From NCBI GenBank assembly GCA_008080735.1, contig SHMW01000004.1, positions 1-64,000 of the forward strand: 64,000 nucleotides of DNA, in the 5' to 3' direction. The translations under genes and the position numbers were made by a program. The notes under the pieces are model-generated. The model made no database searches. It was not told where the DNA came from and was given only the letters and a program-made list of their open reading frames with translations. Source of the DNA: Promethearchaeota archaeon. Lineage in GTDB: Archaea > Asgardarchaeota > Lokiarchaeia > Sigyniarchaeales > SOKP01. Numbering within the stretch: the first letter of the stretch is position 1; each line of letters opens with the position of its first letter. Shown here in pieces: positions 18,094 to 63,157 of this stretch.

Positions 18094-19002
18094 TTACTCG
18101 TTCACAATAACATCAAATGATTGGCTTTTCAGCTGTTCCACGATCTTTTCTATTTTATCTTCTCTTAATTCACCCATATCATGATATTCATCTTTCTTCC
18201 CAATTTTCTCATATTTTGTCTTAGCCATACGATTATAGGGCATCAAATGAACTGAACCAGTAAATCTTATCTCTTTCAAGAAGTCAATTATTCCTTGAAT
18301 CGTTTTTTGATCGGTGTTGAAACCGGGGATTAAGGGAATTCGACATATGATTCTCTCAGGACCCACTAGTTTATATATCCGATGAAAGTTATATAAAATG
18401 TTCTCATTACTAACCCCAGTATAATGTTCGTGTAAATCGGCTTCTATGTGCTTAATATCGAATAGAAATAAATCAGCGACAGAAACCAATTTATCCACCA
18501 TTTCTGAATTGAAATATCCGCATGTTTCGATAGCGGTATGAATTCCCTCCTTTTTTACATTCTTAAGTAAATTCATAAGAAATTCTTTTTGCATCGTAGG
18601 CTCTCCTCCCGAAACAGTTATTCCTCCACCAGAATTATCATAAAAAGGCTTATCTCGGAGAATAATCTCAATTATATCTTGAATACTCTTTTCTTCCCCA
18701 ATAATCTCCATTACATTATTAGGGCAAATTTTAACGCAAGCTCCACATTTTTTACATAGCTTTTTTTCTCTAATTATTCGATTATCTGAAAGTATTAACG
18801 CATTTTCCGGGCAGATTTCGACACATTTACCACATAATCCACATTTTTCTTGAAAATAAGCCAATTGAGGTTCTAATTGTTGGGACTCAGGATTCTGACA
18901 CCAAATACAACTAAGAGGACACCCTTTCATGAACACTATAGTTCGAATTCCGGGACCATCATATATGGCATATTGCTGTATATCAAAAATAATACCATTC
19001 AT
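18094..19002 (-). CDS. Glycyl-radical-enzyme activating enzyme (radical SAM)
   Basis: This 302-residue protein starts at ATG 19002, four bases after the stop of the glycyl radical enzyme. A longer frame to 19092 would overlap that gene by 86 bases and adds nothing conserved. It begins FDIQQYAIYDGPGIRT, the usual PflA-family start, followed by the radical SAM cluster cysteines C28, C32 and C35 (GCPLSCIWC). A two-cluster ferredoxin insert follows (CGLCGKCVEICP and CKKCGACVKICP), as in activases of dehydratase and decarboxylase-type enzymes but not PflA itself. The SAM-binding SGGEP is visible, then DIKH. It installs the glycyl radical on the upstream enzyme using S-adenosylmethionine and is oxygen-sensitive. 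Confidence 0.92.
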   Translation of the reverse strand: MNGIIFDIQQYAIYDGPGIRTIVFMKGCPLSCIWCQNPESQQLEPQLAYFQEKCGLCGKCVEICPENALILSDNRIIREKKLCKKCGACVKICPNNVMEIIGEEKSIQDIIEIILRDKPFYDNSGGGITVSGGEPTMQKEFLMNLLKNVKKEGIHTAIETCGYFNSEMVDKLVSVADLFLFDIKHIEADLHEHYTGVSNENILYNFHRIYKLVGPERIICRIPLIPGFNTDQKTIQGIIDFLKEIRFTGSVHLMPYNRMAKTKYEKIGKKDEYHDMGELREDKIEKIVEQLKSQSFDVIVNE

Positions 19003-19006
19003 ATTT

Positions 19007-21646
19007 CTAAGTTTTTGAATGTTCAGTTCTGGAGATAATCTCTTCTTGTACTTCTCTTCCAAGATCAACAAAATATGCAGAATATCCCCCAACCTTCACG
19101 ATAATATTTCGAAATTTATCCGGATTATCTTGGGCTGCCCTTAATACCTCGGTAGAAACTACTGTCGGTTGTAACTGTTCCCCACCTAAATCAAAATAGG
19201 TTTTTACTAAGGAAATCCATTTTCTTCTGGCTTCTTCAGTTTTTCCGATACTCGAAGGGTGGAGACGAATATTCACCGCACATCCCATTACATGTTGAAA
19301 ATCAAGAGCCGAAACCGATCGGAGGACTCCCGTTGGACCGTTTACTTCCACATTATAAGGATTACAGCTTGCCGCAAAGGGTTTTCCTCCCAGTCGACCA
19401 TCTGCAGTCGCAATAGAAATCCGACCGTCGTATGTATGTGTGGTCATACTATTTATAAAAGGAGCATAAAACCCATCTTTATACGTTCTATATTTATACG
19501 TCTCTTCGAATATATGGGAGGTCACTTTTCTGGCCAATTCATCGCATTCGGGGTTTCCATTACCCCATTTCCCCTCAATATTCATAATCATCTCATGGAT
19601 GTGTTTATATTGGCCACTGTAGTTATGATCAATCGCGTCAAGTAATTCTTTGAATGTGAGAATTTTTCTCTCAAAAATCAATTTTTTGATAACATATAAA
19701 GAATCAACCGTATTCGCGATACTGGTCATAAAGAGGATACCTTCGCAATCATATATGGCCCCACCTTGAGTGATATCCTTCTTACTTTCAAGACACCCTT
19801 GCATAAAAGCTGAAATAAATGGAGCCGGCAAATATTCGGCATATAATTTATCTCTTATTTTTGAAGCTTGCACGATTTTTTTAATCATATAATCGGCTTG
19901 AGCGAAAAACGCTTCTAAAAATTCATCAAAACGGTAAAATTCATCAGGTTCTCCCGTTTTTAGTCCTGCATTTTTTATTGTACCTACTAAAGTTTTCGCA
20001 TTTCCATTTCGGAGTGCCAAATCAAGCGTTCTGCATAATAATATGGAAGAAAAACCCTCCCCTCCAGTTTTTCCGGGTGCGCACATATCTACACATCCTG
20101 TTATGGCATAGTTTCGGGCATCTTCTTGGGTAAATCCTCTATTTAGTAACGCTTGCATGGCGATTTTGTCATTCATCAATGAAATACTTGAAACACCATG
20201 ATAATATAAATCTGCGACTTTCATCAATAACTTTTCTGGGGTTTTATCGTGGATTCTTACCACAAAATTAAGCGATGCTTTTGACTTATCGGCGGCATCT
20301 AACATGATATAAGTTAAATCATTCGTCGCATCGTCTCCCTCCTTATCCAAACCCCCCATTGTGACGGGTTCTGACCCTTCATAACGCTGGCTGAAATCGC
20401 TGGATGCATTGGAATAAGGTCTCATATTATGACTCATTATTTTTAAAAAGAGCTCCTCAAGCAACTCGCAGGCATCTTCCTCTGTGATTTCATTATCTTG
20501 TAAATCTTTTTTGTAATAGGGATATAAGATTTGGTCTAAACGACCGGGAGCATGGACATTAAATGGCATTGCTAATTCTACAGCCGTTTTTACTGTCCAG
20601 TATGATTGAATTGCCTCTCGAAAGGATTCCGCGGGATATAACGGGACTTTTTTGCAAACAATAAACATATCTTTCAAAATTTCTTTTCTTTCGATATCAT
20701 CAGTAGTGTTAAGTTCCTGTTCAATCCAATCTGCTAGTCTTTCAGAATAAATTATAACTCCGTCAAGAGAAATCTTTATAGATTCGAAAAAACTTTTCTC
20801 TTCTTGAGTAAGATTTCCCTTTTCTAATATATCCACGACCTCATTTTTCATTTGTAGCAACCCTTTCTTTATAGGACTTTCATGATCCAAAATCAAATGG
20901 CCCTGCCAGACACCTAAAGCGGCTCCTATTGCGGTCACCATATCATTTTTTGCAGTTCCTCTAGGAAGCGACCTAATAAAATCTCCGAAATCTCCATCAT
21001 ATATTTGCTCTTCAAGAAATTTTTGTTCAAGTTTCTCGGCTATTGTCTTTCCGTCCCAATAGGGAAGCAATTCTTTTAAAAGTTCTTTTTTATCGTCCTC
21101 GTTTATTTGATATGGATTAATATACCTTTTATCTAAAGTCTCAGTCCCTAACGATGGCATCGCAACCCCAATTTCCTTACTCTCCTTAAGACTATTCAAT
21201 AAACCTGAAATACCTTCTTTTTTAATCTTTTTTATCGCGAATTTTAAATTTCCTTTTATACCAAAAAACCACATAGATCGTTTTTTAAGTTCAATTTCGA
21301 ATACCTTATTGAAGAGACCACGTTCTATATCAATTGGGATACCTAAAAAGTTTTCTGTCCATGTACCCGCAATTCTGTCGTCTGGGTCGATATTAAAACG
21401 CATATTTTCAAATACATTATTCATCGCCAAGGCGACTCTAACATTTCTAGGCAGATCTTGATTTTCAGTTTCTTGCCATTTTTCAGTATAATACTTGGCT
21501 CTTTCGATTGATATAAAGGGAGTATCATCAAGAAATCTTTTCCGTATTCTTTTAATTCGTTCACTAGCAAGATCTTCCATATTAAAGTTTTTAATCTCAC
21601 AGGCATTTGAGATTATTCGCGGAGATTTCTCTTCTGTATCACTCAT
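19007..21646 (-). CDS. Glycyl radical enzyme (PFL/diol-dehydratase superfamily)
   Basis: This 879-residue protein is a full-length glycyl radical enzyme. The radical site is Gly854 in KVGGYSAYF near the C-terminus, followed by REVQEEIISR. The thiyl-radical cysteine is C518 in TGCVDMCAPGK. Other family marks are HAPGRLDQILYPYY (365-378) and RPYSNAS (409-415). In dehydratases such as glycerol, propanediol, hydroxyproline and choline enzymes the cysteine is followed by V-E, and that Glu is a general base. Here it is V-D. The N-terminal region (80-180) is also unlike those enzymes. It may belong to the archaeal PflD-like group rather than true pyruvate formate-lyase. A sugar- or polyol-derived substrate is suggested by the upstream kinase and downstream DeoR gene, not proven. 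Confidence 0.9.
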   Translation of the reverse strand: MSDTEEKSPRIISNACEIKNFNMEDLASERIKRIRKRFLDDTPFISIERAKYYTEKWQETENQDLPRNVRVALAMNNVFENMRFNIDPDDRIAGTWTENFLGIPIDIERGLFNKVFEIELKKRSMWFFGIKGNLKFAIKKIKKEGISGLLNSLKESKEIGVAMPSLGTETLDKRYINPYQINEDDKKELLKELLPYWDGKTIAEKLEQKFLEEQIYDGDFGDFIRSLPRGTAKNDMVTAIGAALGVWQGHLILDHESPIKKGLLQMKNEVVDILEKGNLTQEEKSFFESIKISLDGVIIYSERLADWIEQELNTTDDIERKEILKDMFIVCKKVPLYPAESFREAIQSYWTVKTAVELAMPFNVHAPGRLDQILYPYYKKDLQDNEITEEDACELLEELFLKIMSHNMRPYSNASSDFSQRYEGSEPVTMGGLDKEGDDATNDLTYIMLDAADKSKASLNFVVRIHDKTPEKLLMKVADLYYHGVSSISLMNDKIAMQALLNRGFTQEDARNYAITGCVDMCAPGKTGGEGFSSILLCRTLDLALRNGNAKTLVGTIKNAGLKTGEPDEFYRFDEFLEAFFAQADYMIKKIVQASKIRDKLYAEYLPAPFISAFMQGCLESKKDITQGGAIYDCEGILFMTSIANTVDSLYVIKKLIFERKILTFKELLDAIDHNYSGQYKHIHEMIMNIEGKWGNGNPECDELARKVTSHIFEETYKYRTYKDGFYAPFINSMTTHTYDGRISIATADGRLGGKPFAASCNPYNVEVNGPTGVLRSVSALDFQHVMGCAVNIRLHPSSIGKTEEARRKWISLVKTYFDLGGEQLQPTVVSTEVLRAAQDNPDKFRNIIVKVGGYSAYFVDLGREVQEEIISRTEHSKT

Positions 21647-51497: not shown

Positions 51498-52298
51498 CTA
51501 TTTTACAATCCTTCTTTTGATCGCTATCTTATGCCCGATGTATGCTCCTCCAAGAGATGCGATGATAATAAAAGGCAAAAATGCTAAAATGATATAGATA
51601 AGCACCGGTTGCACAGACAAAAAGTACGTTATTATAATTATTATAAAATATATCAAGGCATTTATAAAGGATACTTTAAGATTCAGCGATAACAATCCTG
51701 AAATAAAATTTGCTATACCAAATACGATCACCAACTCCGCAAAAGAAAATAGGACTATCTGTGGTATCAAACGTGTTAAAATCTGCTCTATTGTAAAGAA
51801 GTTTGGATTTGGTGATAAAACTAAGTACTCTGTAGCAAAAATATTTAAAAGTGTAAACAAGATTGATAGTGGAGTTAATATAATCCAAGTCAATGCAAAG
51901 CGCACGGGAAGTGAATACGTGGTATAACGCTTCAGATTGGTTTGCAGTATCTCCTCGATATTACTCCTGTCTATCACTTCTAATTCATAATCAGGTGAAA
52001 ACTCATCAATAAAATCTTGTAATAAATCTTTTAAAAAGTTGCTAACCAATTCATTATTATCTTTTGAACTCACAATTGCCGCTCCGAAAATTTTTTCCTC
52101 TGGTTTTGGCTCGAGAATTAATTTATTATCCTCTCCAAGATCGACGAATTTAACCACGCTTTCAAGCGCTTCTCTGCTAAAATTCGCAACAGAGGCAAAA
52201 AAACCTATTAAAATATTATCATCATATGGTTGGTCCATAAAATTCTTCGAATATAAGAGAATGCCATTTCTTTTGAGTATATATACACTTTTTATCAT
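51498..52298 (-). CDS. Longin/roadblock-like domain fused to a four-helix membrane segment
   Basis: In this 266-residue protein the N-terminal ~120 residues read IKSVYILKRNGILLYSKNF, then NILIGFFASVANFSREAL and KIFGAAIVSSKDN. This is the beta-hairpin, helix, beta pattern of longin/roadblock-type domains, which in eukaryotes sit in trafficking adaptors and SNAREs. Four membrane helices follow (about 128-151, 171-200, 203-222, 224-252) and the protein ends in basic residues. It is the last gene of the ABC locus, 33 bases after the pseudo-ABC gene. The domain assignment is by pattern only. A cytoplasmic sensing or docking role is inference. Confidence 0.6.
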   Translation of the reverse strand: MIKSVYILKRNGILLYSKNFMDQPYDDNILIGFFASVANFSREALESVVKFVDLGEDNKLILEPKPEEKIFGAAIVSSKDNNELVSNFLKDLLQDFIDEFSPDYELEVIDRSNIEEILQTNLKRYTTYSLPVRFALTWIILTPLSILFTLLNIFATEYLVLSPNPNFFTIEQILTRLIPQIVLFSFAELVIVFGIANFISGLLSLNLKVSFINALIYFIIIIITYFLSVQPVLIYIILAFLPFIIIASLGGAYIGHKIAIKRRIVK

Positions 52299-52331: not shown

Positions 52332-54047
52332 TTAATATGTTAATTCTAAAAATTGAGCGACTTCTGTCAAGGATGCTCTATAACGTTTAAAACTATAAAG
52401 ATCTGGTCCAAATATATGGATTAATTTTTTTATTATCTCATTAGGCGCTTCTTTAGGAAATAGTTTGTATTTTTCGTATTTTCTTTCTTCAATTACTATT
52501 GCTGATTTCAGCTCAAATAATTTGTTAATTGCTTCAGTATTTGGATAATTCAGTTCCACGGTAATCAATTCCCCAGATTGAGGTATTTTTTCTATGAGTT
52601 CTTCTTTGGTTCCACATTCTAAACCTTTTTCTGTAATAGTTAGTACCTTATCACAATCAGAAATAATGGTTTCTGGACCGTGAACTATTAATGCTACATG
52701 AAACTCTCTTTTTACATCTTCTAAATATTTCTTAAATTTCTCGTATTGGAGCCGATTTAAAATACCCTTTGGAAGTGAGAACATAATGATATCAGGAGAT
52801 TGTATAAGAGCCCGAGCAATACAAAATAGAAAATAATCTAACGCTTTTAAATCAGATACTGTATTTTTTCTTTTATTATACACTCCCGTAATTTGAAGTG
52901 CCCTCTTCCTAAGTTGTCGTCTTTCGCGATAATCCTGTAGAAATGATACGCTTTTCCAAAAAGGTCCTTTCGTCATCCATTCATCAAACAGAGTTGTAAG
53001 CTCAGACTCTCGTAAAATATTCATAAATTCTTCTTTGCTCCGTTGTCCCTTTATCTTTGTTTCCACATTATATTTAATCGCCTTTTTCAGCTTCATGCCC
53101 GCCATTTTAGAATCAATTGCTTCAGGAACAATGAATATCTTTTCTAAATCCTCTTCAGTGGTTAACTGAATAAATTTACCGAATATTTTTATAGTACCCG
53201 AAAACTGATGGCTTTTTCCTGCGATCGTAGAAAAAAATCTCATTATATTAATCTGTTCTCTACTTGATTCTGAGGAACCTTCATATAAAATTCCTAATGA
53301 TTGTCCTCTCGTAAGCCTAAAACTTATATCTTCCAATTCATCGCTGATTGAGACATCTTCTAATAAAAGATGTTGATAATTTTTGTAAAAATTCCGAATC
53401 TCTAAAATAGATAGAATAATATCTATTAATTCCTCAATTAAATCGATAATATGAGGTGGATTTAACTCATCCCAATTTCTAATAATATCTAATTGGGAAA
53501 ACTCTTCTAGTTTTATTATTCGGGACAGAAAACGTGAGAAATTTATATTTGGTTGAAGCGGGTAATTTTCAAAATTGATATCCAATTGTACATAAAACCC
53601 TGGAAAATAAATTCTTACTCTTCGATGATAAGGTATCTGGTCGAGTTGATAATTCTCAAAATTATCATTGAGAAGTTCTAATTCTCTATCTACTTCTTTT
53701 AAATGGTGTTGAAATTCCCTCTCGATTAATTTATCAATTCTCTGAATGATTTTTCTTGGACTTATTAAACCATCCTCGTCAAAATCCGGTTCGACCAAGA
53801 TTTCATTAAAATCTACTGTCGTTTCTATTGGGGTATTGATTTTTAATAGTGGAACACCTTTTTCTAATACATCCGTGTTAGTAAAGAATAAAACCTCGAT
53901 AAAACTTTTTTTATATTCTAAATCTAAAACGGTCGCTAATCCAAAGGTCCCTTGCCGAAAGATTAACCAATATTTTTCTGAAAACCGAATTGCATCAGTT
54001 ATTTTTTTTCTGAGAATTTCTAATTCTTCTTTCCTTGTTCTACTCAA
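52332..54047 (-). CDS. Degenerate ABC ATPase with RWD/UBC-like N-terminal region
   Basis: The protein is about 571 residues from TTG 54047, which overlaps the end of the upstream gene by 8 bases. A GTG at 54095 gives 587 and a 56-base overlap, and numbering here uses the 587-residue form. Residues ~245-510 align to an ABC ATPase but lack its motifs. Walker A is YEGSSESSREQ with no GKS/T. The signature is VSDLKALDYFL instead of LSGGQ. Walker B ends MFSLPKG instead of LDEPT. An H-loop His remains in VHGPE. The N-terminal ~235 residues hold RVRIYFPGFYVQ, NYPLQPNINFSRFL and RNWDELNPPHIIDLIEELI, a pattern like the UBC/RWD fold without a catalytic Cys. It is probably a structural pseudo-ATPase partner of the upstream ABC protein. 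Confidence 0.6.
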   Translation of the reverse strand: MSRTRKEELEILRKKITDAIRFSEKYWLIFRQGTFGLATVLDLEYKKSFIEVLFFTNTDVLEKGVPLLKINTPIETTVDFNEILVEPDFDEDGLISPRKIIQRIDKLIEREFQHHLKEVDRELELLNDNFENYQLDQIPYHRRVRIYFPGFYVQLDINFENYPLQPNINFSRFLSRIIKLEEFSQLDIIRNWDELNPPHIIDLIEELIDIILSILEIRNFYKNYQHLLLEDVSISDELEDISFRLTRGQSLGILYEGSSESSREQINIMRFFSTIAGKSHQFSGTIKIFGKFIQLTTEEDLEKIFIVPEAIDSKMAGMKLKKAIKYNVETKIKGQRSKEEFMNILRESELTTLFDEWMTKGPFWKSVSFLQDYRERRQLRKRALQITGVYNKRKNTVSDLKALDYFLFCIARALIQSPDIIMFSLPKGILNRLQYEKFKKYLEDVKREFHVALIVHGPETIISDCDKVLTITEKGLECGTKEELIEKIPQSGELITVELNYPNTEAINKLFELKSAIVIEERKYEKYKLFPKEAPNEIIKKLIHIFGPDLYSFKRYRASLTEVAQFLELTY

Positions 54048-57000
54048 TTTCTGGCACCTCCATTGCTCTAAATCTAAAGTATTGTTCCATAACACTGTCC
54101 GATTGCTTTAATCCAAGTATACTGTTTTCTCCAAACGTTTTTTCTAGCTCCTCGCGAACTTCATTCAAATTAAGGTTCGTGAGCAATGCAAAATCCGTCC
54201 CTACCTTATTTTCCAATGCCTTGTCTATTCCTTCAATTTTCTCTAATCTCTCAACAGCATCTTCTTGAATATCGTAGAAGAAAAGCTCAATAGTTCTCCC
54301 ATCACCGGGTAATTGAGACAATAGTTGTCTAGGCGTGCCAAAATCGATCATACCCCTTCCTCTTCCAAATACAACTACTTTATTACAGAATCGTGATTCT
54401 TCAGGATAATGACTGATTACTATTAAGGTGGTATTATATTTCTCATTAATTTGAGTAAGTGCGAGCCATAAATTCTCACGCACAACTGGGTCTAAGCCCG
54501 AAGTAGGCTCGTCCAGTATGCAAAAGATTGGATTATGAATCAGACCCATAGCAATACTCACCCGACGCTTCTGCCCACCCGATAGATTTTTTACAAGCTC
54601 ATTCATCTTATCTTCAATTTCGAGACTTCGAAGAAGTCGTTTGGACTTGCTTACTATTTCTTTTTCGGTTAGACCATATTGCTTTCCAAAATAGATAAGG
54701 TTTTGCAGAGTAGTAAAATCAGTATAGATCTTGCCTAAATCTTGAGGAACATAACCATAAATAGGTCTAATTTTCCGTTTATTTTTTTTTACATCCATTC
54801 CATAAATTTCACATATTCCCGTATATTTGCGCATTCCTAATAAAGCTTTTACGAAGGTGGACTTACCCGCTCCACTTTCTCCTAAAACGCCCAATATCTC
54901 ACCGTGTTCTAATTCAAGCGAAACACCATCCACAATTAGTTTCTTTCCGATATAAATATCTAAATTTTCACAATAAACCGCTGAAAAACGTTTAAGATAA
55001 TTTATATTTAAATCTCCTTCTAGTCCGATCATTGACTTTAAAATTTTCATCACGCGTTCATTAAGATAAGACAATATACTGATGACGATGAAAGCTACTA
55101 TGAGCAGTGCTTCTGATATCATTAACCATATTAATAAATTACTCCACGGCAATGGATCAAATGCCTGGTCATATCGAATTTCATCTATGATCACTAAACC
55201 ATATGGCGTGTTTCTTAAATCGCCCCCAAATGATGGAATATCGCCAACCCCTCCCGTATTTAGACTAATGCATCGTCTATACCATTCGGTAAGAGTTTTG
55301 ATATCTTCGGGTTGTGAACGATATCGATATAAAGCAATCGAACCTAAATAGGTAGATATGAATGAGGAGGGTAATTCAGTTAATTGGGAAAGAAACGGGA
55401 TAATATTAAAGCTCCCCTCCTCTTTTTGGGCGCCTTTTAAAAATTCTATTGCAGCAATTTTAGAAAGAGGTTCTAAATTCAATATTTTATGAATTTCCAA
55501 TCCATAATATGTAGAGATTACATCCGAATGAAATCCGTGAATAATGGAAAATCCTCCATCGGGATTCTGTCCAGAAGAGATCCAGTGAGTAAGAGTATTT
55601 TGATCTATTAGATTAAGAGCATTTAGATCATTCAAACTTTTAATTGCCCAATAGGTACTTTCTGTGGTGGAAATATTCGTGTCAATCAGATCTTTAAGAA
55701 GTAACTCATAAGCAGGTCCGAAATATGATAAAAGTAACTCAAAATCCTCCCCAAGTTTGAATCCTCCATCCGGATTCTGTAAATTAGCTAAATAATTGAC
55801 TGTTGCGGTCACATTTGGGAGATTTTGAAGCGTATACGGTTTAAATAACTGGTATAGAAATACAGCGCAGTAAGTGGAAAATATTGATGAATTAGCTAAA
55901 GGTTGGGAGCCGAATCCCCCATCCTCGGGATTATAACACGAATTTACAAAATTTATTATGCTATTTATATCTATGTATGTTATATATTTTTCTGAATTCC
56001 AATTATAAAGAGCCAAAACGCCGAGATAATTGATTTGAAGATTCGTCTCACCGATGAGACCATTGAAGGCTTGATATTCATACAACCAATTATAATAGTT
56101 TATTTTAAAAGAATCATCAATTACTAAACTACCATTTTTTTCTAATAAAAAGATTGAATTCATTCCACCCCATCCCGATGTGAAATCGGAAACGTTTATC
56201 GCCCAATGAGGACCAAATCCGCCGTCCAAATTAGTACAATTTGTTACAAATTCTTTAGTTTGTGTTTGATTAATAAAAAAACTATTATTAAAATGATAAA
56301 TATTCCATAATGAATAATAAGTTGCCGATATGTCTGAAATCGCGGCTTGAGTAGATGATCTGAACCCCCCATCCAATGGATTATACAATAGATTATAATA
56401 TCCGAAAATTGCTAATTCTTCTGAAGAATTATATGTATACCCCATTTCTAAATACGCTCGAACGCCATAATATGTGGTTTCAGCGGTCACTGTCGTATAG
56501 GAACGATTAGAATACCTATAACTCCCAGAAAATCCTATTGAGTAGTTCCCTAACAATTTAATATAAGCGGTAATAGACGCATTATTCGTTTCGAGAATAG
56601 AGTTAGCGTTGAGTCTTTTTACGAGCTTAATTGCATAGTATGTAGAGATGATATCTGCCTCGGGGACTTCCTCATTATATTTAAATCCCATCCCCCCTTC
56701 ATCTAATGAATTATTGATGTAATCGATTGTCCGATTTATTCTATCTTGATGCTCGGGTGCATCTAAATAACTCCCGTTGAGCAAATCGATCGTTTCAATA
56801 ACCTTATATGTAGAATACATATCGCCAAGACCTCCTATATCAGAATAAGACCCATCGGGATTTTGTTTTTCAAATAAATAATCTAAGAAAAATTCCCGCT
56901 TACTCTCGCTTAGGTTGGGATTATTCACAGGATGGACAAAATGAGATGTGTTAAATAATGGACTGGAAAAATTAATGGAATCGATAGCTCGATAATTCGA

Positions 57001-57168
57001 ATCTATTGTTGGTTCTACGAACAAGTTGTCGGGATTTTGATGAGTGCCAGAAAAATACGCCATATTGTTTTTATAGCTTTTCACTTGAGCTTCACTAAAA
57101 TATTCAATAAACGGAATATTGATTAATCCTAATACAATTAATTCTCCGATGAACAACCCGATAATCAA
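54040..57168 (-). CDS. Fusion of extracytoplasmic prenyltransferase-like alpha-toroid with an ABC ATPase
   Basis: This 1042-residue protein has a membrane helix at 1-22, then about 650 residues outside the cell rich in Asn/Ser/Thr. At least nine motifs of the prenyltransferase/squalene-cyclase repeat occur there (QNPDGS, NPLDGGF, NLDGGFG, NPEDGGFG, QNPDGGF twice, QKEEGSF and others), each followed by a helix like STYYAIK. The second membrane helix is about 676-702. An intact ABC ATPase follows: Walker A GESGAGKS (763-770), LSGGQ (862-866), Walker B LDEPTSGLD (885-893) and H-loop His920. The start is TTG 57168. Basic residues (RKKKRRIKY) lie in frame upstream without an ATG, so the true start is uncertain. 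I know no described transporter with this layout. Confidence 0.75.
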   Translation of the reverse strand: MIIGLFIGELIVLGLINIPFIEYFSEAQVKSYKNNMAYFSGTHQNPDNLFVEPTIDSNYRAIDSINFSSPLFNTSHFVHPVNNPNLSESKREFFLDYLFEKQNPDGSYSDIGGLGDMYSTYKVIETIDLLNGSYLDAPEHQDRINRTIDYINNSLDEGGMGFKYNEEVPEADIISTYYAIKLVKRLNANSILETNNASITAYIKLLGNYSIGFSGSYRYSNRSYTTVTAETTYYGVRAYLEMGYTYNSSEELAIFGYYNLLYNPLDGGFRSSTQAAISDISATYYSLWNIYHFNNSFFINQTQTKEFVTNCTNLDGGFGPHWAINVSDFTSGWGGMNSIFLLEKNGSLVIDDSFKINYYNWLYEYQAFNGLIGETNLQINYLGVLALYNWNSEKYITYIDINSIINFVNSCYNPEDGGFGSQPLANSSIFSTYCAVFLYQLFKPYTLQNLPNVTATVNYLANLQNPDGGFKLGEDFELLLSYFGPAYELLLKDLIDTNISTTESTYWAIKSLNDLNALNLIDQNTLTHWISSGQNPDGGFSIIHGFHSDVISTYYGLEIHKILNLEPLSKIAAIEFLKGAQKEEGSFNIIPFLSQLTELPSSFISTYLGSIALYRYRSQPEDIKTLTEWYRRCISLNTGGVGDIPSFGGDLRNTPYGLVIIDEIRYDQAFDPLPWSNLLIWLMISEALLIVAFIVISILSYLNERVMKILKSMIGLEGDLNINYLKRFSAVYCENLDIYIGKKLIVDGVSLELEHGEILGVLGESGAGKSTFVKALLGMRKYTGICEIYGMDVKKNKRKIRPIYGYVPQDLGKIYTDFTTLQNLIYFGKQYGLTEKEIVSKSKRLLRSLEIEDKMNELVKNLSGGQKRRVSIAMGLIHNPIFCILDEPTSGLDPVVRENLWLALTQINEKYNTTLIVISHYPEESRFCNKVVVFGRGRGMIDFGTPRQLLSQLPGDGRTIELFFYDIQEDAVERLEKIEGIDKALENKVGTDFALLTNLNLNEVREELEKTFGENSILGLKQSDSVMEQYFRFRAMEVPEIE

Positions 57169-57238
57169 TAATAAATACTTGATTCGGCGTTTTTTCTTTC
57201 TGTCTATTATTATTCACCTGGTTTATGTATTGCTTTTT

Positions 57239-58269
57239 CTACTTTTCTAATAATTCTAATCTATCTTTCTCTTCCTCTCTTTTGATTCGTAATTGGAAAT
57301 AACGTCTAAAATTTGCAACATCTCTGCTCATTGCCATTATCTTGACTTCTCTTTCCAGTAAATAGTCGATAAGAGGGAGTAAATTTTCCTCGAAATCTTC
57401 TAAAAATACCTCGACTACATCATTACCTACTCGAGATACTTCTTCACAATGCTCAAAATCCGCTATTATATCAATGATCTCTCCTGTGAGGTTTTCAATC
57501 GATAATCTCGCTAGTAATCCATTGCTTGGTAGAGAGGAAATTAAATTATGGGGGGTATCGAAATCAAGTAATTTTCCTTTCCTTAAGATTGCGGTCTTAT
57601 CACAGACAAGTGCCGCCTCTAAATCATGTGTGATGATAAACATTGTAGTCCCTAGTTTTCGGTTTAATTTCTTAAGATAATTAAGGATATCATAACGCTT
57701 ATTGGCGTCTACACCTTTTATCCAAATTAATTGAGATAATTAATTTGTGTGGTAGGTTCATCTAAAAATAAGACGCCTGGATTATGAATAAGCCCTATAG
57801 CCATTGAGACTCTCTTTTTTTCTCCTCCACTAAGACTTTTTAGTGGGTTTTTCCATGTATCTTCGGGAATATCAAGTATAGAAAATAACTCTCTAGCACG
57901 TTTTCTTGCGTCCTTTTTTGTCATCCCGTAATTTGATCCGAATATTTCTACATTAACTAGCGGGGAAAGTTCATAATAGAGATTTAGTAATTCTAACTGT
58001 GGAACATAACCAATATTACTTAATATCTCAGAGTGATTTCTTTTCTTAGCAGGATTCAGACCAGTGACCATTATATCACCTGACCAATTGTTTTTCTTGA
58101 TTTGACAAGTTAGAACTCTAATTATAGTTGTCTTTCCAGCTCCAGATATTCCAAATAATCCAATTAATTCCTTTTTTTTAACATTGAAAGATACATTATG
58201 AATAATTTGAGAATCACCAAAAAACACATTAAGATTCTCAACATCAACAGATACTTGATTTAAAATCAA
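57239..58269 (-). pseudogene. ABC transporter ATPase interrupted by a 32-base insertion
   Basis: The 5' part (58269 to about 57728, TTG start) encodes a normal ABC ATPase: GISGAGKT (40-47), YVPQLELLN, LSGGEKKR and LFLDEPTT. It then runs into inserted DNA and a TAA. The 3' part resumes at about 57715 in another frame with GVDANKRYDILNYLKKL, MFIITHDLEAAL and a ~120-residue C-terminal domain ending LELLEK at 57239. Removing 57716-57747 restores DEPTT-GVDA, the normal Walker B/D-loop. Both halves are otherwise intact, so the disruption is recent or an assembly error. It would be the ATPase for the two upstream permeases. Confidence 0.7.
57716..57747. repeat. 32-base insertion carrying a perfect hairpin
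   Basis: The insert contains caaattaatt and its exact reverse complement aattaatttg (57723-57732 and 57738-57747) with a 5-base loop, plus 7 extra bases on one side. It sits exactly between codons for DEPTT and GVDA of the ATPase. Its length is not a multiple of three. No flanking target duplication is visible. Confidence 0.6.
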
Positions 58270-59825: not shown

Positions 59826-61064
59826 TTACACTTCATACCTCCGTTTGTAGAATAGAATGAATGTGACTATATTCAATACGATGCTTATCCCAAGAAGGAA
59901 AAAGAAATGAAATCCAAATACAGTCTTTCCTTTTGCCAAAATAGCTTCCACCATCGGACTTCCATGTGTTAATGGCAATATATTCGCAAAGACTCGTAAA
60001 TAGATGGGCATCGATCCTAATGGAACAAAAATACCACTGAGCAAAATAATAACAATGAAAAATGCAAAGAATAACTGATTTGCCTCCGTTTTACTCTTAC
60101 TGAGAGAACTAATGAAAAGACCGAGACTAATTCCAGTGTATCCTAGGATATATATCGCTAGGAACAGCTCAGATAAGGACCCCTTCAAATAAAGACCGCC
60201 AAATATAGAAGCTAAAAGTATGAGAAGAGTTTGTAGAAATAATACTAACGAGTAAGTGATATATTTCGAGATGAGTACTTCTGCTCGTTTTACGGGGGTG
60301 AGTAATAATCGTGCTATGGGTTTTTCTTTCACGATCACTAGAATCGTCAATACATTTGCGATTCCGAAAATCATCAAAGGCAAAATCATAATCAAATTCG
60401 AGTTCAAGCTGGCATTATAATCTGCTGGAATTGAAAACTCTTCATTCGGCTCTAATACAATTTGAGGAGTCAAATTATTCGCTGAGATAAAAAGATTCAC
60501 AGAATCATATATCGCATTCAATATTTTTTGAATATCTGCGATTCGTGAAGAATCTGGTATACACTCGATCGAGGCGGGGAGCTCATATTCAAGCATCTCA
60601 CTAAATTCTAAAGGAACAACAATAATGCATTTTATTTCTCCATGTAATAACATATTTCTAGCAGTTTCCATCGAATATCTTTGTTCGGGGTTTGTGGTAT
60701 TATAAAATGCTATTAGATTCAAAGAGTCTGTCTCATTGACCGCGTTTATGTATGGAATGGTATAATTATCCCATGTGGTTTCTGTATAATTATTATTGGG
60801 ATTAATAAAGGTGTTTGAATCATTTGAGACGATTACTACGGGAAATGCACTTCCATTACCCGCTTCTTGATTCATAAAAGAAAATAACATAATGATTCCA
60901 GGAGGTAATAGTAGCGCGATGACTAAATTCCACGGATCAGTCCGTAATAGTCTAAATTCTTTTTTAATTTGTTTAAAAAGGCGAAATAAGCTGTTCTTCA
61001 AATTTATTATTGTTCTTTTGAAAGAACTCTTTTGATTTTTATCTGTTTTCTGTTCTTTCACCAT
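59826..61064 (-). CDS. ABC-2 type permease
   Basis: This 412-residue protein starts at ATG 61064, which overlaps the stop of the upstream permease (TGATG). A TTG at 61067 is an alternative. It has one membrane helix near residues 50-68 (LVIALLLPPGIIMLFSF) and a ~160-residue extracytoplasmic domain with YNTTNPEQRYSMETARNML and IIVVPLEFSEMLEYEL. Five further helices follow, with the conserved GYTGISLGLFISSLSKSKTEANQ segment. This is the ABC2_membrane export permease layout (DrrB/YhgE-like). It pairs with the adjacent permease, and the matching ATPase genes downstream are damaged. Confidence 0.88.
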   Translation of the reverse strand: MVKEQKTDKNQKSSFKRTIINLKNSLFRLFKQIKKEFRLLRTDPWNLVIALLLPPGIIMLFSFMNQEAGNGSAFPVVIVSNDSNTFINPNNNYTETTWDNYTIPYINAVNETDSLNLIAFYNTTNPEQRYSMETARNMLLHGEIKCIIVVPLEFSEMLEYELPASIECIPDSSRIADIQKILNAIYDSVNLFISANNLTPQIVLEPNEEFSIPADYNASLNSNLIMILPLMIFGIANVLTILVIVKEKPIARLLLTPVKRAEVLISKYITYSLVLFLQTLLILLASIFGGLYLKGSLSELFLAIYILGYTGISLGLFISSLSKSKTEANQLFFAFFIVIILLSGIFVPLGSMPIYLRVFANILPLTHGSPMVEAILAKGKTVFGFHFFFLLGISIVLNIVTFILFYKRRYEV

Positions 61065-62203
61065 CAAACCTCCACCTTTTTAAACATATATACTATATAA
61101 GCTAATGCATCATATATAAGCGCAATAATTACTACAATCAACAATGAATAGATATCTACGGGCAATCCTTTCAACGTGATTTCCAATACCAATGGTATTG
61201 AATGATACAATGGGAACGAATAAATTATTGCTTGCATAAATACGGGCAAATTATCGGCACTAATAAACTGCCCTGAAAATATTAATATGACAATAAAAAA
61301 CATAATATATAACTGATTTGCTTGTTGATCGGTGCCACTTAGAGACGAAATAAATAGACCTATTGACACCCCAGAAAATCCAATGGCAAGCAGAACTAGA
61401 AATAATTCAAAGAGAGATCCAAGACTATAAAGCCCAAAGAGAGCTGTCGCAACAAAGATTTCCGCTACTTGTATGCTCATTATTGCTGAATTTGCGATAA
61501 GTTTACTTAATATAATTGACCTTTTTGAGGTTGGAGTAATCAGCATTCGAGGTAATGGTCCTTCAGAAACAATTGATAAGCAAGATAAATTCATCGTGGT
61601 TCCAATAATAATTAACGGAATAGTCAGCGCAAATGCGTAGTTCACGACCTGAGCCTCCCAGAATGGTACTTCAAATTCTAAATATGGTATGAAATATGTG
61701 AAATTGGCGGTTTTTCCAATTTTTATTCTAAATTGAGCGATTGGCTCGAACATGGTCACGTTTATAGCACTTACTGCATCTGAATCTGAGCCGTCTATAT
61801 AAAAAATTATTGGAATATCAGTATTATTCTCAACTGTTTCCGAAAAATTTTCGGGAAGGACTAAGAACACATCAATGACTTCATCTTTTAACCATTGGGT
61901 ATAAAATGATTTTGCTTCTTCATATTCTTCTGGATTAGTAACATTACGATAGCCCTTGAATCCAAAAGATGATAAATTACCTTCAAACACATTAATAAAA
62001 TCGTCCGCATATTGGGACGAATTTTCGGGGAAATTCTCATATGTGGGAATACTATCTTTTGAAATAATAGATACATTGAAGAATTCAGTAGGACCCCCTC
62101 CTGAGGTTAACCCGAATACTATAATTAAGATCAGTGGGATTGCAAATAAGAGAATTAGAGTACGCTTATCACTTCGTATTCTCCCAAACTCCTTTCTTAT
62201 CAA
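61064..62203 (-). CDS. ABC-2 type permease
   Basis: This 379-residue protein has the same layout as its downstream neighbour. A first helix (TLILLFAIPLILIIVFGLTS) is followed by a ~170-residue extracytoplasmic domain with VFLVLPENFSETVENN. Five helices follow, with IGFSGVSIGLFISSLSGTDQQANQ. It starts at TTG 62203. The frame stays open upstream with KIKLSG, so a few more residues are possible. The two permeases probably heterodimerise to export a compound or lipid. It is the first gene of the ABC locus, divergent from the corrinoid gene. Confidence 0.88.
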   Translation of the reverse strand: MIRKEFGRIRSDKRTLILLFAIPLILIIVFGLTSGGGPTEFFNVSIISKDSIPTYENFPENSSQYADDFINVFEGNLSSFGFKGYRNVTNPEEYEEAKSFYTQWLKDEVIDVFLVLPENFSETVENNTDIPIIFYIDGSDSDAVSAINVTMFEPIAQFRIKIGKTANFTYFIPYLEFEVPFWEAQVVNYAFALTIPLIIIGTTMNLSCLSIVSEGPLPRMLITPTSKRSIILSKLIANSAIMSIQVAEIFVATALFGLYSLGSLFELFLVLLAIGFSGVSIGLFISSLSGTDQQANQLYIMFFIVILIFSGQFISADNLPVFMQAIIYSFPLYHSIPLVLEITLKGLPVDIYSLLIVVIIALIYDALAYIVYMFKKVEV

Positions 62204-62521: not shown

Positions 62522-63157
62522 ATGAGTTTATTAGAAGAATTAAAAAATAGTGTAATTGAGGGAGAACCTACAAAATCTGCCGAAATTGCAGATCAGATCG
62601 TAAAAAATAAGGGAAATATTCAGGAAGCGATAATCAAGGGACTGAATGCTGCTATGCTTGAAGTTAGCAGATTATATAAATCAAAGGAATATTATTTACC
62701 CGAAATAATAATTGCATCTGATGCATTGTATAGTGCGTTAGAGGTGTTTAAACCACATCTCGAAAAGGTTACATTAAAGAAGAAAGCTGTAGTGGTAATT
62801 GGTGTGGTGCGCGGAGATATTCATGATATTGGAAAAAACCTTACCAAGTTATTTTTGGAAGCCATGGGGTATGAAGTTATTGATTGTGGAAGAAATGTGA
62901 AAGCAGAGACCTTTATTGAGAAAATTCGCGAACATGATGCGGATATTCTCGCTCTTTCAACTCTTATGAATCCAACTCTAGAAAGCATCAGTGAACTTAT
63001 TGAAATTCTTAAAAAAGAGGGTATATACAGCAAATTAACGATATTGATTGGTGGTGCGGCTACGAACGAAGAATTTTCAAAAAAAATCGGGGTAACCTAT
63101 TGTAGAGAGGCTTTTGAAGCTATTGAGGTGTTAGATAGAAAATATGGGGGGAAATAA
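62522..63157 (+). CDS. Corrinoid protein of a methyltransferase system
   Basis: This 211-residue protein has the helical cap domain (1-85, with SRLYKSKEYYLPEIIIASDAL) and a Rossmann cobalamin domain. The cobalt-ligand motif D-x-H-x-x-G is GDIHDIGKN with H101. LSTLMNPTLE gives the Ser/Thr loop and IGGAATNEEF the nucleotide-tail glycine loop. It carries a methyl group on cobalamin between a substrate-specific methyltransferase and a second methyltransferase. The next gene, 3 bases downstream, is the likely partner. Methoxylated aromatics, methylamines and methanol are all possible methyl donors. Confidence 0.9.
   Translation: MSLLEELKNSVIEGEPTKSAEIADQIVKNKGNIQEAIIKGLNAAMLEVSRLYKSKEYYLPEIIIASDALYSALEVFKPHLEKVTLKKKAVVVIGVVRGDIHDIGKNLTKLFLEAMGYEVIDCGRNVKAETFIEKIREHDADILALSTLMNPTLESISELIEILKKEGIYSKLTILIGGAATNEEFSKKIGVTYCREAFEAIEVLDRKYGGK

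What the first reader, a model, noticed from the sequence alone, without database searches (positions are those of the whole stretch)
54040..57168. An ABC ATPase carrying a 650-residue extracytoplasmic prenyltransferase-like toroid in the same chain
The sequence shows a membrane helix, nine or more DGG-type toroid repeats, a second membrane helix and a complete ABC ATPase with Walker A, LSGGQ, Walker B and H-loop. Toroid repeats of this kind are known in terpene cyclases, protein prenyltransferases and thioester proteins, and ABC domains normally pair with separate permeases. I know no described family with both in one chain. It may be an ATP-driven surface receptor, lipid handler or motor that couples ATP use inside to a binding toroid outside.
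Basis: partly seen in the sequence, partly recalled or inferred. Interest (0 to 1): 0.85.

Follow-up and report, generated by a model that had tools for sequence, protein, structure and literature searches.

The report
Lokiarchaeal ABC transporter with fused toroid
In one class of Asgard archaea, the engine protein of a membrane pump carries a large ring-like repeat domain on the outside of the cell in the same chain, as part of a conserved six-gene set; this combination appears undescribed, and its cargo is unknown.

Summary
Window 54040-57168(-) is one intact frame (open to 57213): basic N-terminus, TM helix, ~640-residue prenyltransferase/squalene-cyclase-type alpha-alpha repeat domain, second TM helix, complete ABC ATPase. 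It is not an assembly join: the same full-length chain occurs in at least 40 independent Lokiarchaeia genomes (incl. Sigyn- and Helarchaea) and in no other genome I found. AlphaFold (mean pLDDT 88.5) gives ~24 helices (about 12 hairpins), twice a single alpha6/alpha6 barrel; ring closure was not verified. Prenyltransferase zinc ligands, cyclase DxDD and TED thioester motifs are absent, so it is probably a binding module. It sits in a conserved operon: two ABC-2 permeases, a partner ABC ATPase, toroid-ABC, a catalytically dead ABC with tandem RWD/UBC-like domains, and a longin-like membrane protein. The NBD tree shows one origin, from a widespread Asgard heterodimeric ABC pair that elsewhere accompanies an extracellular S8 subtilase. 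Best reading: heteromeric type V (ABCA-like) exporter whose extracytoplasmic toroid captures or guides cargo; the mechanism is inferred. Separately, the partner ATPase gene carries a canonical bulge-helix-bulge intron in seven genomes, including this one. New variant of a known kind.

The parts
54040..57207 (-). Toroid-ABC protein, whole gene (ORF 54040-57168 with TTG; likely true start AUA at ~57205-57207)
   Evidence: full-length homologues
57109..57207 (-). Basic N-terminus (DRKKKRRIK) and first membrane helix (positive-inside, N-in)
55180..57093 (-). Extracytoplasmic alpha-alpha repeat (toroid) domain, residues 26-663, about 12 helical hairpins
   Evidence: Pfam; PDB profile; AlphaFold; repeat period
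55027..55155 (-). Second membrane helix inside one long helix, residues 672-714; flexible linker 707-719
54304..54981 (-). ABC ATPase domain, residues 730-955; Walker A 54859-54882, LSGGQ 54571-54585, Walker B/Glu 54505-54519, H-loop 54409-54411
54043..54303 (-). C-terminal regulatory-type domain of the ABC protein, shared with the dead ABC paralogue
52332..54095 (-). Catalytically dead ABC paralogue; ORF start overlaps the toroid-ABC gene (likely start near 54047)
   Evidence: hhalign prob 99.7, E 2.5e-25 to toroid-ABC; Walker A/B lost in all 25 members; PDB profile hits to NBDs
53403..54035 (-). Tandem RWD/UBC-like domains at the N-terminus of the dead ABC protein
   Evidence: AlphaFold pLDDT 88.6; Foldseek KMN/FANCL/Knl1/E2; RWD Pfam hit in 1 of 25
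51498..52298 (-). Longin-like domain (residues 1-125) followed by membrane helices
   Evidence: searches (weak Sybindin, Clat_adaptor_s; about 10 paralogous domains in the genome; Fuz_longin_1 weak, in a paralogue), hydropathy
57239..58269 (-). Partner ABC ATPase, split into two ORFs (57727-58269, 57239-57643) by a predicted intron
57716..57747 (-). Predicted 32-nt bulge-helix-bulge intron in the partner ABC gene (register ambiguous by 1 nt)
59826..61067 (-). ABC-2 permease 1 (PF12698)
61064..62203 (-). ABC-2 permease 2 (PF12698)

Best explanation
This is one ATPase subunit of a heteromeric ABC-2 (type V, ABCA-like fold) transporter of Lokiarchaeia. Shown: two ABC-2 permeases, two catalytically complete ATPases (one carrying the ectodomain), one dead ATPase with tandem RWD-like domains and one longin-like membrane protein are encoded together in fixed order. 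Inferred: the permeases form a heterodimer driven by the NBDs of the partner ABC and toroid-ABC; the toroid, held outside the membrane by two helices of the ATPase chain, binds a hydrophobic or peptide cargo at the outer face of the permeases and receives it from, or presents it to, the translocation path, while the dead RWD-ABC and longin-like subunits regulate or dock the cytoplasmic side. Export rather than import is inferred from the permease and NBD families.
For: Six-gene order perm2-perm1-ABC-toroidABC-deadABC-longinTM complete in 29 of 43 loci; 11 more are cut by contig or locus ends, two (L083, L118) lack permeases beside the ATPases, one (L116) is rearranged. Toroid-ABC and dead-ABC frames overlap by 4-29 nt in most, i.e. 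probably translationally coupled. All catalytic NBD motifs conserved. NBD closest to ABCA3/ABCA1/NosF/TM1403. Permeases PF12698 at E 1e-26 to 1e-29. NBD tree: toroid-ABC one clade (96/98), grouped with Asgard NBDs found beside S8 subtilases; partner ABCs likewise group with that system's second NBD, so the two ATPases are an old heterodimer. Toroid without enzyme motifs (zinc ligands D/C/H aligned to T/E/S).
Against: No substrate, expression or complex data. No conserved biosynthetic neighbour outside the cassette. Low-confidence linker between TM2 and NBD leaves coupling open. N-glycosylation sequons are denser in the toroid but exceed expectation in the NBD too, so they do not prove topology. 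In two loci the permeases are not adjacent.
Confidence: 0.55

Rival explanations
1. Mechanotransmission complex (FtsEX/MacB-like): the ATPases and ABC-2 membrane proteins do not carry a substrate through the membrane but move the extracytoplasmic toroid, which acts on cell-surface polymers, proteins or partner enzymes.
For: Sister Asgard systems with the same NBD pair accompany a large extracytoplasmic S8 subtilase instead of a toroid, as FtsEX controls extracellular hydrolases (general knowledge).
Against: Flexible TM2-NBD linker; permease type is that of exporters, not the FtsX/MacB type.
Confidence: 0.2
2. Importer or receptor: the toroid is a high-affinity extracellular binding domain like that fused to bacterial ECF S-components, delivering a vitamin-like or lipid ligand inward.
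For: A Solirubrobacterales locus has a toroid fused to an ECF S-component beside a double-ABC ATPase (L143); transcobalamin-type toroids bind cobalamin (general knowledge); a B12-binding gene flanks the cassette at 62522-63157.
Against: Cassette permeases are ABC-2, not ECF; the B12-binding neighbour did not recur next to the cassette in relatives (it was a query and gave no hit).
Confidence: 0.12
3. The toroid is an enzyme (terpene cyclase or prenyltransferase) attached to a transporter.
For: Sequence relation to RabGGTase beta, FTase beta and SHC.
Against: DxDD absent in 26 of 28 including the window, no DCTAE, no QW motif, D-x-C pair absent in 24 of 28, zinc-ligand positions T/E/S.
Confidence: 0.05
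4. Assembly or annotation artefact joining two genes.
For: None found.
Against: Same chain in at least 40 independently assembled genomes, about 1020-1100 codons each without stops.
Confidence: 0.01

Closest known systems
ABCA / ABC-2 (type V) exporters, NosDFY, GldA, DrrA
   Same: NBD sequence and fold, C-terminal extension after the NBD, ABC-2 permeases
   Different: Known members place the ectodomain on the permease or on a separate protein such as NosD (general knowledge); here it is on the ATPase chain behind its own membrane helix, and the domain is an alpha-alpha toroid
Bacterial ECF S-component fused to a prenyltransferase/SQHop toroid (L143)
   Same: Extracytoplasmic toroid joined to an ABC-type transporter
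   Different: Toroid sits on the substrate-binding membrane protein, not on the ATPase; ECF, not ABC-2
Asgard S8-subtilase-associated ABC system (L062-L076)
   Same: Closest NBD pair in the tree; ABC-2 permease; large extracytoplasmic component
   Different: ATPase has a cytoplasmic N-terminal domain; the extracytoplasmic part is a separate S8 protease; no dead RWD-ABC or longin-like subunit recognised
Protein prenyltransferase beta subunits (RabGGTase, FTase) and squalene-hopene cyclase
   Same: alpha-alpha hairpin repeats with DGG turns
   Different: No catalytic residues; about twice the number of repeats of a prenyltransferase; membrane-tethered
Archaeal cbf5 introns (PMC2738675), for the partner gene
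   Different: Different gene and lineage; splicing not shown here

Membership tests
ABC transporter ATPases | Walker A, LSGGQ signature, Walker B + catalytic Glu, H-loop | tested here: met
   conserved in 28 homologues; Pfam over cut-off
ABC-2 (type V) exporter system | Two PF12698-type permeases and two competent NBDs encoded together | tested here: met
ABC-2 (type V) exporter system | ATP-driven export of a substrate | not testable with these tools
   no biochemical data
Prenyltransferase/SQHop toroid superfamily | alpha-alpha hairpin repeats with profile similarity | tested here: met
   Pfam 4.6e-36, PDB profile 9e-26, AlphaFold
Prenyltransferase/SQHop toroid superfamily | Closed alpha/alpha barrel | tested here: inconclusive
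   fold search returned only NBD matches among the best 50; coordinates not readable
Protein prenyltransferase beta subunit | Zinc ligands Asp, Cys, His | tested here: not met
   aligned residues T, E, S; D-x-C in only 4 of 28
Squalene-hopene / terpene cyclase | DxDD or DCTAE acid motif, QW repeats | tested here: not met
TED (thioester) domain | CGEQ thioester | tested here: not met
   0 of 28
ECF transporter | S component and T component | tested here: not met
   cassette permeases are ABC-2 by Pfam
S8-associated Asgard ABC system | S8 subtilase next to the ATPase pair | tested here: not met
   no such large ORF in the cassette
BHB archaeal intron (partner gene) | 3-nt bulge, 4-bp helix, 3-nt bulge at exon-intron joints | tested here: met
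   93.9% of cells paired, covariation 0.469 versus at most 0.184 when slid
BHB archaeal intron (partner gene) | Removal from mRNA by splicing endonuclease | not testable with these tools
   needs RNA data

The most novel reading that the evidence does not exclude
A new transporter type in which an ATPase chain itself spans the membrane and holds a double alpha-alpha toroid outside, assembled with a dead RWD-ABC and a longin-like membrane protein (eukaryote-type adaptor folds used as transporter subunits), serving a Lokiarchaeia-specific cell-surface lipid or lipoprotein; and whose partner ATPase is made only after intron removal from its mRNA in some genomes.
Probability: 0.3. Interest if true: 0.8.

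Novelty: new variant of a known kind. Interest (0 to 1): 0.64.

Why it matters
It is a single-origin, class-wide cell-surface machine of archaea near the root of eukaryotes. It shows an ABC ATPase that is itself a transmembrane protein with an ectodomain, and RWD/UBC-like and longin-like folds recruited as likely transporter subunits. It gives a defined six-gene target for structural work in cultured Lokiarchaeia. The predicted intron in the partner gene would add another gene to the very short list of archaeal protein genes with BHB introns.

Tried and rejected
Assembly artefact: rejected. Pseudogene reading of the split partner ABC gene: rejected in favour of an intron, because seven genomes have a 31-34 nt insert at the same codon joint with a covarying BHB structure. 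Translational bypassing of the same insert: disfavoured, no matching landing codon. Sequon enrichment as a topology test: not decisive, the NBD is enriched too. Fold search of the whole model: only NBD matches in the listed best 50, so it could not test ring closure. Longin assignment with Sybindin/clathrin-adaptor models over the whole genome: below cut-off and the cassette gene itself not hit; only indirect support. A general scan of the window for other BHB introns recovered the known site but gave about 100 mostly low-quality candidates, so nothing further is claimed. Literature searches for a described toroid-ABC protein found none; subscription journals and preprints were not covered.

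Full report
What is there. The frame 54040-57168 on the minus strand is intact and stays open to 57213. The 1042-residue product has Pfam Prenyltrans (4.6e-36), SQHop_cyclase_C and ABC_tran (1.4e-25) domains. Homologues begin with a basic stretch (MDRRKKR...) that the window encodes upstream of the TTG, after ATA codons and an AGGTGA box, so the true start is probably AUA near 57207. Hydropathy shows helices around the TTG start and at 673-707. With the basic N-terminus and an NBD that must meet cytoplasmic ATP, the repeat domain is outside (inference).

Is it real. The same chain was found full length in about 25 of 58 relatives, in about 46 genomes of the phylum set, all in the same class as the window, and in 43 named loci: Lokiarchaeota, Sigynarchaeum and Helarchaeota. 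After these, toroid similarity drops from about 1e-68 to 1e-18, and none of the further toroid proteins carries this ABC domain in its chain. Because that scan uses two short peptide patterns, distant fusions elsewhere could be missed.

Fold. AlphaFold with 28 homologues gives mean pLDDT 88.5; residues 26-663 are helices in hairpins with short DGG-type turns. The conserved-glycine signal repeats at 51-54 and 101 residues, and I count 11-12 repeats, about twice those of a protein prenyltransferase. The profile matches RabGGTase beta (9e-26), FTase beta and SQHop-type proteins. Ring closure is untested: the fold search of the whole model listed only NBD matches in the best 50. Enzyme motifs are missing: zinc-ligand positions read T/E/S against RabGGTase D/C/H in the printed alignment, no DxDD in the window, no CGEQ. 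Cys411 and Cys633 are invariant, reason unknown.

Surroundings. The order perm2, perm1, partner ABC, toroid-ABC, dead ABC, longin-like membrane protein is complete in 29 of 43 loci; 11 more are cut by contig or locus ends, L083 and L118 lack permeases beside the ATPases, and L116 (Helarchaeota) is rearranged. The permeases are PF12698 ABC-2 proteins. The dead ABC protein aligns with toroid-ABC over the whole NBD and C-terminal domain (hhalign 99.7%, 2.5e-25) but has lost Walker A and Walker B in all 25 members. Its first 242 residues fold confidently (88.6) as two alpha-beta domains whose best structural matches are RWD/UBC proteins: KMN, FANCL, Knl1 and E2 enzymes, E about 0.006-0.05, with probabilities up to 1.0; the assignment is likely, not certain. 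The 266-residue protein has a domain repeated in about 10 proteins of this genome with weak longin-family hits, then membrane helices.

Origin. In a tree of 57 NBDs, toroid-ABC domains form one clade (96/98), grouped with NBDs from a different Asgard system; partner ABCs group with that system's second NBD. That system has an ATPase with a cytoplasmic N-terminal domain, ABC-2 permease(s) and in most loci a 1200-1670 residue extracellular S8 subtilase with a C-terminal membrane helix (S8 identity and topology read from the sequences, not by a Pfam run). So the toroid module was apparently joined once to one half of an old heterodimeric ATPase pair. The tree is unrooted and contains only these ABC groups.

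Mechanism. The parts list is that of a complete heteromeric ABC-2 transporter. I favour an exporter in which the tethered toroid binds cargo at the outer face (0.55), over mechanical action through the toroid on surface polymers (0.2) or ligand uptake (0.12). A bacterial precedent for toroids on ABC-type transporters exists: an ECF S-component fused to a toroid beside its ATPase. No step of transport is shown here.

Intron in the partner gene. The partner ABC gene is split in this window. Comparing 34 copies, seven carry a 31-34 nt insert at exactly the same codon joint (DEPTT/GVDA), with stops or a frame shift. Each insert is a hairpin; exon and insert ends pair as a 3-bp exon helix and a 4-bp helix flanked by two 3-nt bulges, the canonical bulge-helix-bulge. 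Pairing is 93.9% with covariation 0.469 against 0.184 or less for slid partners. The structure was derived from these sequences, so the slid control favours it, but the 4-bp helix (AACU/AGUU, GACU/AGUU, UACC/GGUA) and exon helix (GCC/GGC, ACC/GGU) co-vary. The window has one C-A mismatch. Cutting in the bulges restores the protein. Documented archaeal pre-mRNA introns are those of cbf5 (PMC2738675); I found no report from Asgard archaea in the open library.

Verdict. Observation confirmed, interpretation partly supported, new variant of a known kind.

Noticed in passing
57716-57747 (-); also L035, L039, L044, L049, L094, L118: A 31-34 nt insert at one codon joint of the partner ABC ATPase gene forms a canonical, covarying bulge-helix-bulge: a predicted pre-mRNA intron in an Asgard protein-coding gene, patchy across genera.
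   Followed up: yes
52332-54095 (-) and relatives: A family of dead ABC ATPases with tandem RWD/UBC-like N-terminal domains in Lokiarchaeia.
   Followed up: yes
51498-52298 (-); G000 C19, C1, C90, C67, C17, C14: The longin-like N-terminal domain of this protein occurs in about ten proteins of the genome; at least two of them continue into a second, roadblock-like domain by eye (L161, L162).
   Followed up: partly
L062-L076: Conserved Asgard cassette of ABC ATPase pair, ABC-2 permease and a very large extracellular S8 subtilase with C-terminal membrane helix; the ATPase has variable cytoplasmic N-terminal domains (winged-helix-like repeats by eye in L066, L072).
   Followed up: partly
L120:1526-4381: Archaeoglobales protein with a prenyltransferase-type toroid inside an OLD-like ATPase/TOPRIM chain (AAA_15, AAA_21, OLD-like_TOPRIM by Pfam).
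   Followed up: no
L143:3450-7663: Solirubrobacterales ECF S-component fused to a squalene-cyclase-type toroid, overlapping a double-ABC ATPase gene.
   Followed up: partly
L125, L127, L128: Heimdallarchaeota and another archaeon have pairs of adjacent large toroid proteins (380-1431 aa).
   Followed up: no
18094-19092 and 19007-21646 (-): Two long overlapping reading frames in different frames; possible frameshift or second split gene, not compared with relatives.
   Followed up: no
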